From Algibacter marinivivus (GTDB lineage Bacteria > Bacteroidota > Bacteroidia > Flavobacteriales > Flavobacteriaceae): DNA of 64,000 nt. A program made the translations under genes and the position numbers. The DNA lies in NCBI RefSeq assembly GCF_003143755.1, contig NZ_QFRI01000001.1, positions 868,001 to 932,000 on the forward strand. The letters are read 5' to 3'. This document shows, in pieces, positions 12,973-55,396 of this stretch; position 1 is the first letter of the stretch; each line of letters starts with the position of its first letter. The notes under the pieces are model-generated. The model had not been told where the DNA came from, searched no databases, and was given only the letters and a program-made list of their open reading frames with translations.

Positions 12973-13033
12973 AAACAAAAAAGTCTAACATTTCTGTTAG
13001 ACTTTTTTTGCTCCTTCTCTAGGGCTCGAACCT
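12973..13033. repeat. 61-bp direct repeat, copy 1 (terminator plus tRNA-Asn 3' end)
   Basis: Identical base for base to 13367-13427, offset by 394 bp. It contains the hairpin terminator and the 3' acceptor strand and T-arm sequence of tRNA-Asn. Identity stops at the palindrome beginning at 13034. Confidence 0.93.
12977..13009. terminator. bidirectional terminator (repeat copy 1)
   Basis: AAAAAAGTCTAAC (12977-12989) pairs with GTTAGACTTTTTT around the loop ATTTCT. A runs on one side and T runs on the other allow termination in both directions; it ends the ArsC-like gene and the leftward GIY-YIG transcript. Confidence 0.82.
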
Positions 13034-13065
13034 GTCCCGAAAGCTTTCGGGACTCTGATTAACAG
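13011..13065 (-). pseudogene. displaced tRNA-Asn 3' half
   Basis: On the minus strand this reads the anticodon arm (CTGTTAATCAGAG), then a 20-bp palindrome in place of the variable loop and 5' T-stem, then the intact T-loop, 3' T-stem, acceptor strand and discriminator of tRNA-Asn. The 5' half of the tRNA is missing. It supplies the stop codon (TAA at 13061-13059) of the GIY-YIG gene. It is best explained as the original 3' half of the tRNA, displaced when the cassette inserted. Confidence 0.85.
13034..13053. repeat. 20-bp perfect palindrome inside the tRNA remnant
   Basis: GTCCCGAAAGCTTTCGGGAC is its own reverse complement. It replaces about 7 bp of the tRNA sequence. A related palindrome lies at 30384-30401. 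Confidence 0.9.
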
Positions 13066-13349
13066 CCCTTATATTTATCTAGTAGCTTTTTGGCTAACTC
13101 TGGATATTTTAAAAAGTTTTCTATATAAACCTTACTCTTCATGCGTTTTATATGAGACTCTATTGCCAAACCTTGCGATTTACTTTTGCAAGCTATTACA
13201 TAAAAAACTTCCCAATCTGTTGCTTTTCCTGTAAATTTATAACCCTCAGCTTTTTTATGAAATACTAACCTTTCCTCTAAATTAGTTGTAAAACCTACAT
13301 AATACTTATTTAGCTTATCGGAATAAAGAATATAAACACATGGTTTCAT
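13059..13349 (-). CDS. GIY-YIG nuclease family protein in a tRNA-Asn locus
   Basis: A 96-aa single-domain GIY-YIG protein (UPF0213/YhbQ type). VYILYS (5-10) and YYVG (16-19) form the GIY and YIG strands, R27 and H31 follow, and E64 in LAIESHIKRMKS is the expected metal-binding Glu. The last codons (KYKGC and stop) are read from a displaced fragment of tRNA-Asn. The gene lies on the same strand as the intact tRNA, 56 bp after its 3' end and behind a terminator, and is bracketed by 61-bp direct repeats. This suggests a homing-type cassette, although single-domain GIY-YIG proteins can also be ordinary repair factors. Confidence 0.88.
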   Translation of the reverse strand: MKPCVYILYSDKLNKYYVGFTTNLEERLVFHKKAEGYKFTGKATDWEVFYVIACKSKSQGLAIESHIKRMKSKVYIENFLKYPELAKKLLDKYKGC

Positions 13350-13366
13350 TTATAAAAACTGTTTTA

Positions 13367-13427
13367 AAACAAAAAAGTCTAACATTTCTGTTAGACTTTT
13401 TTTGCTCCTTCTCTAGGGCTCGAACCT
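13367..13427. repeat. 61-bp direct repeat, copy 2
   Basis: Identical to 12973-13033. This copy belongs to the functional tRNA-Asn and its terminator. Confidence 0.93.
13371..13403 (-). terminator. tRNA-Asn terminator (repeat copy 2)
   Basis: The same GTCTAAC/GTTAGAC hairpin with flanking A and T runs as at 12977-13009, immediately after the tRNA 3' end. Confidence 0.82.
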
Positions 13428-13478
13428 AGGACCCTCTGATTAACAGTCAGATGCTCTAACCAACTGAGCTAAGAAGGA
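13405..13478 (-). tRNA. tRNA-Asn(GUU)
   Basis: The minus strand folds into a complete cloverleaf: acceptor TCCTTCT/AGAAGGA, D-arm GCTC..GAGC, anticodon stem TCTGA/TCAGA with loop CTGTTAA (anticodon GTT), T-arm CTAGG-TTCGAGC-CCTAG, discriminator G. CCA is not encoded. A consensus promoter lies upstream and a terminator follows. The 3' half is duplicated 394 bp downstream as a remnant. Confidence 0.96.
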
Positions 13479-13502
13479 ATGTGCTTTTTAACTTAGCGAG
13501 TG

Positions 13503-13533
13503 CAAATATATATTGTTTTTTAATTTCTGCAAA
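13503..13533 (-). promoter_or_regulatory. tRNA-Asn promoter TTTG-N19-TATATTTG
   Basis: On the minus strand, TTTG (13533-13530), a 19-bp spacer and TATATTTG (13510-13503) match the consensus exactly. The predicted transcript starts about 18 bp before the mature tRNA. Confidence 0.85.
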
Positions 13534-30348: not shown

Positions 30349-30457
30349 GCGTTAGGGATTGTAGTGGATAGCCCACAGCCCGATCCCGATAGCTATCGGG
30401 AGAGGTGCGAGGACTTGGAACGAAAAGCCCGACCCTTGTGGTAACGCCCAAAAAATT
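30349..30457. repeat. structured intergenic repeat, copy B
   Basis: It shares GCGTTAGGGATTG at the left and AAAGCCCGACCC-TTGTGG plus TAACGCCCAAAAAAT at the right with copy A (15789-15878); the terminal GCGTTA/TAACGC pair again. The middle differs and holds an 18-bp palindrome. It lies between the divergent mfd and TerB genes. Confidence 0.75.
30384..30401. repeat. 18-bp palindrome nested in repeat B
   Basis: TCCCGATAGCTATCGGGA is self-complementary. It differs from the core of the palindrome at 13034-13053 at two positions that change together, so symmetry is kept. Confidence 0.85.
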
Positions 30458-55216: not shown

Positions 55217-55345
55217 GTAATTTTTTTGTTTTTTATACGTCCTAAATATAACATTGTTAGTTGAATTTTTAGCTGTTTTGTTACAATTGTACTGTGTTAA
55301 GGATAGAAACGGCATCCTTTCTTGCCATTAAAAGCAAAAAAGATA

Positions 55346-55396
55346 TAGTGGATAGCCTGACCTTATAACGCCATAAGCGTTTTAAGGGAACACCCA
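55346..55396. repeat. structured intergenic repeat, degenerate copy C
   Basis: TAGTGGATAGCC is shared with copy B (30362-30373), and the right end GGGAACACCC resembles the TAACGCCC end of copies A and B. AACGCC-ATAA-GCGTT forms a small hairpin in the middle. It lies between divergent genes. Confidence 0.5.

What the first reader, a model, noticed from the sequence alone, without database searches (positions are those of the whole stretch)
12973..13533. tRNA-Asn split and regenerated by a GIY-YIG nuclease cassette
Seen: read on the minus strand, an intact tRNA-Asn and its terminator are followed by a GIY-YIG gene, whose stop codon lies in a second, incomplete tRNA-Asn (anticodon arm, T-loop, acceptor, terminator). 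A 61-bp segment (tRNA 3' end plus terminator) is repeated exactly, offset 394 bp. Inference: a cassette carrying its own tRNA 3' half inserted in the anticodon arm of tRNA-Asn, restoring a working tRNA and displacing the old 3' half. That is how integrases use tRNA genes, but here the only protein is a 96-aa GIY-YIG nuclease, which would make it a very small homing-type element. Single-domain GIY-YIG genes beside tRNAs seem frequent in Bacteroidota (recollection, not checked).
Basis: partly seen in the sequence, partly recalled or inferred. Interest (0 to 1): 0.78.

Follow-up and report, generated by a model that had tools for sequence, protein, structure and literature searches.

The report
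tRNA-gene-invading GIY-YIG nuclease element
A tiny DNA-cutting-enzyme gene sits beside an essential tRNA gene together with a broken, hairpin-bearing copy of that tRNA, and the same arrangement recurs at many different tRNA genes across the Bacteroidota, which points to an apparently undescribed family of very small selfish elements.

Summary
In the window, an intact tRNA-Asn and terminator are followed by a 96-aa GIY-YIG gene whose stop codon lies in a second, 5'-truncated tRNA-Asn; 61 bp repeat exactly, 394 bp apart. A same-genus genome has the empty site: one tRNA, one terminator, net 392 bp less. Of 112 related GIY-YIG clusters in 299 genomes of the family (top 150 hits), 96 have a same-strand tRNA within 250 nt and none an opposite-strand one; 0 of 30 loci of a generic GIY-YIG clade do. 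Two mirror layouts exist: tRNA-GIY-broken tRNA, and broken tRNA-GIY-tRNA. The broken copy usually carries an added hairpin, with a TCCCGA/TCGGGA stem recurring across three orders. Nuclease clades are isotype-specific; tandem arrays are common. Best reading: a homing-type selfish element that inserts into tRNA genes and keeps one tRNA whole, working like fungal mitochondrial mORFs and phage SegB but a member of neither. Cleavage, mobility and the hairpin's role are inferred, not shown. Ten paper searches found no description.

The parts
13404..13478 (-). intact tRNA-Asn (anticodon GTT), downstream of rseP
   Evidence: ARAGORN; Rfam RF00005 69.9 bits; only Asn tRNA among the 30 of 36 tRNA matches of the genome that I examined
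13371..13402 (-). terminator of the intact tRNA (inverted repeat plus T run), just before the GIY-YIG gene
   Evidence: the repeat finder; sequence; terminator function inferred
13059..13349 (-). GIY-YIG nuclease gene, 96 aa; stop codon inside the tRNA fragment
   Evidence: ORF; Pfam PF01541 E 3.1e-13; dN 0.049, dS 0.403 against the orthologue in G004
13053..13065 (-). displaced tRNA-Asn fragment, first part (tRNA positions 33-45)
   Evidence: 13-nt exact match to the intact tRNA
13035..13052 (.). 18-bp perfect palindrome TCCCGAAAGCTTTCGGGA in place of most of the variable loop of the fragment
   Evidence: same hairpin at the same place in G004
13010..13033 (-). displaced tRNA-Asn fragment, second part (T arm and acceptor 3' strand)
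   Evidence: part of the 61-bp exact repeat
12977..13008 (-). second copy of the terminator
12973..13033 (-). 61-bp direct repeat, downstream copy
13367..13427 (-). 61-bp direct repeat, upstream copy (intact tRNA 3' end plus terminator)

Best explanation
It is a minimal homing-type selfish element. The GIY-YIG nuclease recognises the gene of one tRNA isotype and cuts it. Repair copies in a unit of about 300-400 bp made of the nuclease gene plus one part of the same tRNA. After insertion one complete tRNA remains; the displaced part stays on the far side of the nuclease gene, carrying an added hairpin that is conserved with the element. The nuclease gene has little room for its own promoter in the window (about 20 nt between terminator and ATG) and is probably expressed by read-through of the tRNA terminator. 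Tandem arrays arise when the locus is cut and repaired again or recombines unequally. Because the host tRNA is essential, imprecise loss of the element should be costly. Shown: anatomy, empty sites, isotype-specific clades, arrays, purifying selection on one nuclease pair. Inferred: DNA cleavage, homing, read-through, and the role of the hairpin (end or recognition structure, block to re-cutting, or inactivator of the displaced tRNA part).
For: Anatomy. Empty site in G008, net 392 bp shorter, 607 aligned columns 89% identical. At the rseP-tRNA-Asn locus 65 of 69 loci examined are empty and 4 occupied. 96 of 112 GIY clusters have a same-strand tRNA within 250 nt (one of them, L096, only a doubtful ARAGORN call), none on the opposite strand; generic-clade control 0 of 30. 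Named set: 61 of 80 (four only with doubtful calls), none opposite. A broken tRNA on the far side of GIY: 83 of 90 against 1 of 86 in regions 600-820 nt away; 40 of 45 against 0 of 40 in named genomes. In the own genome the tRNA fragments close to tRNAs, apart from one 12-mer hit, are at the two GIY-bearing tRNAs (30 of 36 tRNA matches examined). Isotype changes on the nuclease tree 31 against a shuffled minimum of 83; layout changes 8 against 31. 26 of 112 clusters are tandem; 38 adjacent copy pairs, median identity 97.8%, 9 identical. Window nuclease dN/dS about 0.12. SegB, a phage GIY-YIG, cuts in tRNA genes and drives tandem amplification of a tRNA gene (PMC13096335, passages read).
Against: No cleavage or transfer was observed. 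The protein is a bare GIY-YIG domain without a recognisable DNA-recognition domain; its closest solved relatives are UPF0213 and SLX1 proteins, the latter structure-specific. The intact tRNA re-forms the whole uncut target, so self-immunity is unexplained. No relative was found in the phage and plasmid collections with the window protein at E 0.01 nor in IMG/VR with the Val-type profile, so no vehicle is known. The named nuclease tree is partly vertical (order changes 15, minimum 7, shuffled mean 19.6; few columns). One locus has broken hairpin tRNAs without GIY (L311). 16 of 112 clusters have no intact tRNA within 250 nt, 7 of them cut by contig ends; 19 of 80 named loci likewise, 5 of them cut. 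7 of 90 and 5 of 45 loci gave no broken copy by my threshold.
Confidence: 0.72

Rival explanations
1. The tRNA gene was tandemly duplicated first; a GIY-YIG gene later landed between or inside the redundant copy, which then decayed. No homing is involved.
For: Tandem tRNA-Asn copies without GIY occur (L337, L339). In Pro-tgg loci the broken copy is nearly full length. L311 has hairpin-bearing broken copies without GIY.
Against: A simple insertion into a spare copy would leave both halves of it, one on each side of GIY; in most A loci only some 30-70 nt lie between tRNA and GIY, and those I read show no 5' half there. Broken copies close to a tRNA in the own genome are found only with GIY, apart from one 12-mer hit. 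Association with a nuclease clade, many isotypes and both sides is not explained.
Confidence: 0.1
2. The nuclease acts on the cognate tRNA (RNA), as a toxin or defence effector, and the neighbouring tRNA or broken tRNA is its antidote or decoy.
For: Isotype-specific clades; tRNA-nuclease linkage; weak hits to PADLOC candidate system PDC-S14 for the window protein (E 0.0023) and, for the tRNA-Val copy, to PDC-S14 and a homing endonuclease model.
Against: Related GIY-YIG proteins act on DNA (SLX1, I-TevI: recalled; SegB). Decayed copies with stops, sporadic presence at one conserved locus (65 of 69 empty) and arrays look selfish. Hits are marginal.
Confidence: 0.08
3. Remnant of a tyrosine-integrase island that used the tRNA as attachment site.
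For: Integrases duplicate tRNA 3' ends (recalled); some GIY loci lacking the intact tRNA look like far ends of such islands (L109, L124, L154; by eye).
Against: No second ORF of 60 aa or more lies in the 333 bp between the repeats in the window. Mirror form B displaces the 5' part. Nuclease and broken tRNA are regular partners.
Confidence: 0.03
4. A group I intron or other self-splicing RNA in the tRNA anticodon loop.
For: GIY-YIG genes often ride in such introns (recalled); weak NCBIfam hit grpIintron_endo, 20.5 bits, below the cut-off of 56.05.
Against: An intact tRNA precedes the insert; cmscan finds only tRNA and Flavo-1 in the window, and tRNAs plus one SAM riboswitch in 60 related loci.
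Confidence: 0.01

Closest known systems
Fungal mitochondrial mobile ORFs (mORFs) that replace gene 3' ends (Allomyces atp6; Glomus atp6, atp9, cox2, nad3; PMC3630166, passages read)
   Same: A homing endonuclease gene (GIY-YIG in Glomus atp9) arrives with a copy of the host gene's 3' end, the gene stays usable, and the native end is displaced beyond the nuclease gene.
   Different: There protein genes of mitochondria and a foreign, divergent inserted end; here bacterial tRNA genes, an extra part that mostly matches the local tRNA, a mirror form with a displaced 5' part, and an added hairpin.
Phage T4/T6 SegB, free-standing GIY-YIG homing endonuclease of the tRNA region (PMC13096335, passages read; PMC2988022, passages read)
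   Same: GIY-YIG nuclease beside tRNA genes; cuts within tRNA genes (reported motif RAWTSGAAC, which I read as the T-loop consensus); causes tandem amplification of the tRNA and nuclease segment.
   Different: In a phage tRNA cluster, not in a bacterial chromosomal tRNA gene. In the passages read I saw no displaced tRNA part with hairpin. No PHROG hit for the window protein at E 0.01; the tRNA-Val copy has two weak ones, one of them a homing endonuclease family (E 0.0036).
UPF0213/URI-type single-domain GIY-YIG proteins and SLX1
   Same: Closest solved structures by profile: 1zg2 E 2e-12, 1ywl 2.9e-10, SLX1 7cq2 7.8e-5.
   Different: No tRNA linkage known to me for those; a generic GIY-YIG clade in the same family of bacteria has none (0 of 30).
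REP/RAYT palindrome systems (recalled; PMC3733652 and PMC6006769 seen only in a search listing)
   Same: A nuclease gene with a recurring hairpin close to it, and dispersed palindromes of related sequence in the genome.
   Different: RAYTs are HUH tyrosine transposases (recalled); here a GIY-YIG nuclease. Whether the dispersed palindromes are moved by it is unknown.

Membership tests
GIY-YIG nuclease superfamily | GIY-YIG catalytic domain with conserved Tyr, Arg, Glu | tested here: met
   PF01541 E 3.1e-13; in a 12-sequence alignment Y6, Y17, G19, R27, H31 and E64 are among the invariant columns; their catalytic assignment is recalled
GIY-YIG homing endonuclease | gene absent from an otherwise intact cognate site in relatives | tested here: met
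   empty site in G008; 65 empty against 4 occupied of 69 at rseP-tRNA-Asn
GIY-YIG homing endonuclease | cleaves the empty allele and converts it | not testable with these tools
   needs protein and genetics
GIY-YIG homing endonuclease | separate DNA-recognition domain, as in I-TevI (recalled) | tested here: not met
   96 aa; Pfam finds only the GIY-YIG domain and a sub-threshold T5orf172 overlap on the same residues
mORF-type gene-end-replacing element | nuclease gene flanked by a whole gene and a displaced part of it | tested here: met
   83 of 90 and 40 of 45 loci have a broken tRNA copy on the far side
mORF-type gene-end-replacing element | inserted part foreign to the host lineage | tested here: inconclusive
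   in most loci read by eye the extra tRNA part and terminator match the local ones; tRNAs are too conserved to decide
Group I intron with GIY-YIG ORF | intron RNA interrupting the gene | tested here: not met
   intact tRNA present; no intron family in cmscan
Integrase-type tRNA-targeting island | tyrosine recombinase gene in the insert | tested here: not met
   only the GIY-YIG ORF (of ORFs of 60 aa or more) lies between the repeats
REP/RAYT | HUH Y1 transposase (recalled) | tested here: not met
   the only protein found is GIY-YIG
REP/RAYT | recurring hairpin next to the nuclease gene | tested here: met
   new hairpin with stem of at least 6 bp in 66 of 90 and 35 of 45 loci; hairpin begins 3-36 nt after the stop in 26 of 30 A loci and ends 14-46 nt before the gene in 30 of 36 B loci for which it was measured

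The most novel reading that the evidence does not exclude
The GIY-YIG nuclease and the hairpin form a two-component mobile system of the Bacteroidota. The single-domain, SLX1-like nuclease recognises the hairpin as a structured element end as well as the tRNA gene, and similar hairpins, spread alone (46 copies within three mismatches in this genome), are its non-autonomous derivatives: a GIY-YIG counterpart of RAYT/REP, with essential tRNA genes as safe harbours.
Probability: 0.25. Interest if true: 0.9.

Novelty: new variant of a known kind. Interest (0 to 1): 0.8.

Why it matters
A phylum-wide family of about 300-400 bp selfish elements with one 80-100-aa protein would be among the smallest autonomous mobile elements. 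It lives in essential tRNA genes, so it makes a clean test of how homing nucleases parasitise genes that cannot be lost, how a bare GIY-YIG domain finds one tRNA isotype, and what the recurring hairpin does. It also offers a source for many anonymous GIY-YIG genes and tRNA pseudogenes in Bacteroidota genomes, and perhaps for some of their dispersed palindromes.

Tried and rejected
Whole-transcript folding to see whether the hairpin protects tRNA folding (14 A and 28 B loci): the acceptor stem mostly had near-zero probability with and without the hairpin, although the tRNA alone folds (0.73-0.99 in six tRNAs). Uninformative; dropped.

Link between dispersed TCCCGATAGCTATCGGGA copies and GIY genes: 79 of 299 genomes have the palindrome. 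By my reading, 5 of these 79 and 84 of the other 220 lack a GIY hit at E 1e-8. Those hits probably include generic-clade proteins, and genome size and descent confound it; not used as evidence. In B-type tRNA-Asn loci the hairpin is this very palindrome (5 of 5), even in G149, whose genome holds a single copy, so it seems to travel with the element there. In the window's genome, by contrast, the two broken tRNAs carry other hairpins than the common dispersed one.

A boxA-like motif before the gene in type B: 6 of 51 against a shuffled mean of 0.18 and maximum of 2; in type A 0 of 39. Suggestive only; the motif was recalled and chosen after seeing the loci.

Perfect-stem counting missed long imperfect hairpins (for example CCCGCCTGAACGAATTCATTCGGGCAGG), and 27 of 46 B-type intact tRNAs also have a stem of 6 or more (2 of 35 in A), so I counted only hairpins absent from the intact tRNA. 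The pair table is conditioned on pairing and says nothing about covariation.

The junction statistics leave out 13 of 90 aligned loci that scored below 33 (listed there); one search makes its own selection of 90 loci from the 112. Script labels 'B' for L294 and L324 come from open frames that start inside the tRNA. I read both as type A: L294 agrees for the same locus (L088); L324 was not checked further.

Integrase, intron and toxin readings: see rivals.

Full report
WHAT IS IN THE WINDOW. On the minus strand, downstream of rseP, lie an intact tRNA-Asn (13404-13478), its terminator, a 96-aa GIY-YIG ORF (13059-13349) and a second, truncated tRNA-Asn with its own copy of the terminator. The ORF's last codon and stop lie in the fragment. 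The fragment starts at tRNA position 33, in the anticodon loop, and most of its variable loop is replaced by the perfect palindrome TCCCGAAAGCTTTCGGGA (13035-13052). The 61-bp exact repeat and 394-bp offset are as reported. Between the first terminator and the ATG there are about 20 nt, so the gene probably depends on read-through from the tRNA promoter (inference). The protein is a single GIY-YIG domain (PF01541). Its closest solved relatives by profile are UPF0213 proteins and then SLX1. Against the 89%-identical protein of G004, dN is 0.049 and dS 0.403, which indicates purifying selection.

EMPTY SITES. In the same genus G004 has the same insert with the same hairpin, whereas G001, G002, G003, G005, G007, G008 and G009 have rseP-tRNA-Asn without it; G006 is cut by a contig end. 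G008 keeps the same downstream gene (by eye). Aligned to it, the window is longer by a net 392 bp (the aligner split the insert into four pieces of 37, 148, 163 and 44), with 607 aligned columns 89% identical. Taking 79 rseP loci (10 of the genus, 29 further ones returned and 40 that I chose from its unfetched list), 69 have tRNA-Asn after rseP, of which 65 are empty and 4 occupied. By their coordinates G042 and G100 also have a GIY gene next to rseP; they were not among the loci examined. One of the 65 empty loci, L311, holds two broken hairpin-bearing tRNA-Asn copies but no GIY gene.

THE PATTERN IS GENERAL. A profile of 12 relatives hit 210 of 299 genomes of the family at E 1e-8; the weaker hits probably include GIY-YIG proteins of other clades. 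The 150 best-scoring hits, which are those listed, form 112 clusters, all fetched. Of these, 96 have a same-strand tRNA within 250 nt: 42 upstream (A), 48 downstream (B), 6 both; one of the B cases, L096, rests on a doubtful ARAGORN call. None has one on the opposite strand. Of the 16 others, 7 are cut by contig ends, and the seven that I printed carry tRNA fragments as far as I can read them by eye. As control, 30 loci of a generic GIY-YIG clade of similar size in the same family (30 fetched of 41 listed matches; three of the 30 cut by contig ends) have no tRNA within 250 nt and one within 1.5 kb. In a second set of 80 named loci, the best 80 of 138 confirmed relatives of a Val-type profile, 61 have a same-strand tRNA call within 250 nt (four of them, L224, L256, L276 and L282, only doubtful calls) and none an opposite one. 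This set overlaps the first in part, since some contigs are the same. Where the title names an order they come from Flavobacteriales, Bacteroidales, Chitinophagales, Cytophagales, Saprospirales and Sphingobacteriales, with two loci labelled Actinomycetales and Brocadiales that I take for misbinned MAG contigs.

TWO MIRROR LAYOUTS. A: promoter - intact tRNA - terminator - GIY - broken tRNA 3' part - terminator. B: promoter - broken tRNA 5' part - GIY - intact tRNA, the ORF's 3' end often overlapping the tRNA. Promoters are inferred. Among loci with a clear alignment, the broken part runs to the tRNA 3' end in 34 of 34 A loci and starts at tRNA position 1 or 2 in 41 of 43 B loci; 13 weaker alignments are left out of these counts. 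Both layouts occur at tRNA-Asn (8 A, 5 B in the tree set). Aligning each intact tRNA to the far side of GIY finds a broken copy in 83 of 90 family loci against 1 of 86 in stretches 600-820 nt away, and in 40 of 45 named loci against 0 of 40 (5 more skipped at contig ends, the other named loci having no clear single tRNA). In the window's own genome, of 36 tRNA matches I examined 30; tRNA fragments near a tRNA were found at the two GIY-bearing genes, Asn and Val, with one further 12-mer by a tRNA-Pro and one hit about 1.5 kb from a tRNA.

THE HAIRPIN. The broken copy holds a hairpin that the intact tRNA lacks (perfect stem of at least 6 bp) in 66 of 90 and 35 of 45 loci. The stem TCCCGA/TCGGGA recurs at Val, Arg, Asn, Met, Ala, Phe and Asp tRNAs, and in named Flavobacteriales, Bacteroidales and Sphingobacteriales, while the loops vary. 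B-type Ala, Arg and Met loci carry longer CCCGCC.../CCTGCC... hairpins, and most Pro-tgg loci CACGC stems. Where measured, the hairpin begins 3-36 nt after the GIY stop in 26 of 30 A loci (in the other 4 the frame runs past it) and ends 14-46 nt before the gene in 30 of 36 B loci. In G000 related palindromes occur 46 times within three mismatches. Of the 15 loci with exact matches that I read, one is the window's own fragment, 13 are the centre of an approximately 100-bp dispersed repeat that does not look like tRNA, and one stands alone. Whether those belong to the element is open.

TARGET CHOICE AND ARRAYS. On a tree of 141 nucleases, tRNA isotype changes 31 times against a shuffled mean of 88.5 (minimum 83 in 200 shuffles), and layout 8 times against 43.0 (minimum 31): nuclease clades are largely faithful to an isotype and a layout. 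Part of this may be vertical descent. 26 of the 112 clusters are tandem arrays of 2-5 copies, mostly 304-406 bp apart; 38 adjacent pairs have a median identity of 97.8%, 9 are identical. Some arrays lie on single-contig genomes, such as G146 with five copies, so they are not all assembly artefacts. On the named tree taxonomic order changes 15 times (minimum 7, shuffled mean 19.6), poorly resolved: partly vertical, with transfer between orders possible.

MECHANISM. The most economical reading is a homing-type element: the nuclease cuts its cognate tRNA gene, and repair from an occupied allele installs the nuclease gene plus a tRNA part that leaves one tRNA whole. The fungal mitochondrial mORFs do this to protein genes (PMC3630166, passages). 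Phage SegB cuts in tRNA genes and drives tandem tRNA amplification (PMC13096335, passages). The T4 review describes RNA hairpins that regulate homing nuclease genes and notes that embedded essential promoters favour retention of the nuclease (PMC2988022, passages). In most loci read by eye the extra tRNA part and terminator match the local ones; either the element homes between near-identical alleles, or the repeat is made or homogenised on site. What protects the re-formed tRNA from cutting, and what the hairpin does, are open. I rank: end or recognition structure; block to cutting or recombination at the displaced part; silencing of the displaced tRNA part; control of nuclease expression.

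KNOWN OR NEW. I found no description of this arrangement in ten paper searches (an eleventh was rejected for a bad term and did not run). I saw their listings, and passages of three papers. The library lacks most subscription journals and all bioRxiv preprints, so absence there is weak evidence. No relatives were found in 50,697 phage and 72,556 plasmid records with the window protein at E 0.01, nor in IMG/VR with the Val-type profile.

Noticed in passing
L311 (G117), about 140-560 nt after rseP: Two tandem units of nearly full-length, hairpin-bearing broken tRNA-Asn plus intact tRNA-Asn with no GIY gene: a possible non-autonomous or remnant form.
   Followed up: partly
window 30384-30401 and 13 of the 15 read loci of L001-L015: Dispersed repeat of about 100 bp (GCGTTAGGGATTG...TCCCGATAGCTATCGGGA...GGTAACGCCC) centred on the palindrome; no Rfam match over the gathering score at the window copy.
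   Followed up: partly
L081, L109, L124, L154: GIY units preceded by only the 3' part of a tRNA, which look like far ends of integrated islands that split the tRNA from its GIY neighbour.
   Followed up: no
G000:C1:548882-549316 (L038, L046, L358): A second element of the same kind in the window's own genome at tRNA-Val, with a further hairpin-bearing fragment upstream of the tRNA.
   Followed up: partly
L083, L140, L070, L163, L167, L129, just before the GIY ATG: boxA-like motif (GTTCTTT or CTTTGACA) in six type-B leaders, perhaps antitermination so that the downstream tRNA is transcribed.
   Followed up: partly
window 55292-55366 (+): Flavo-1 RNA (RF01705, 50 bits).
   Followed up: no
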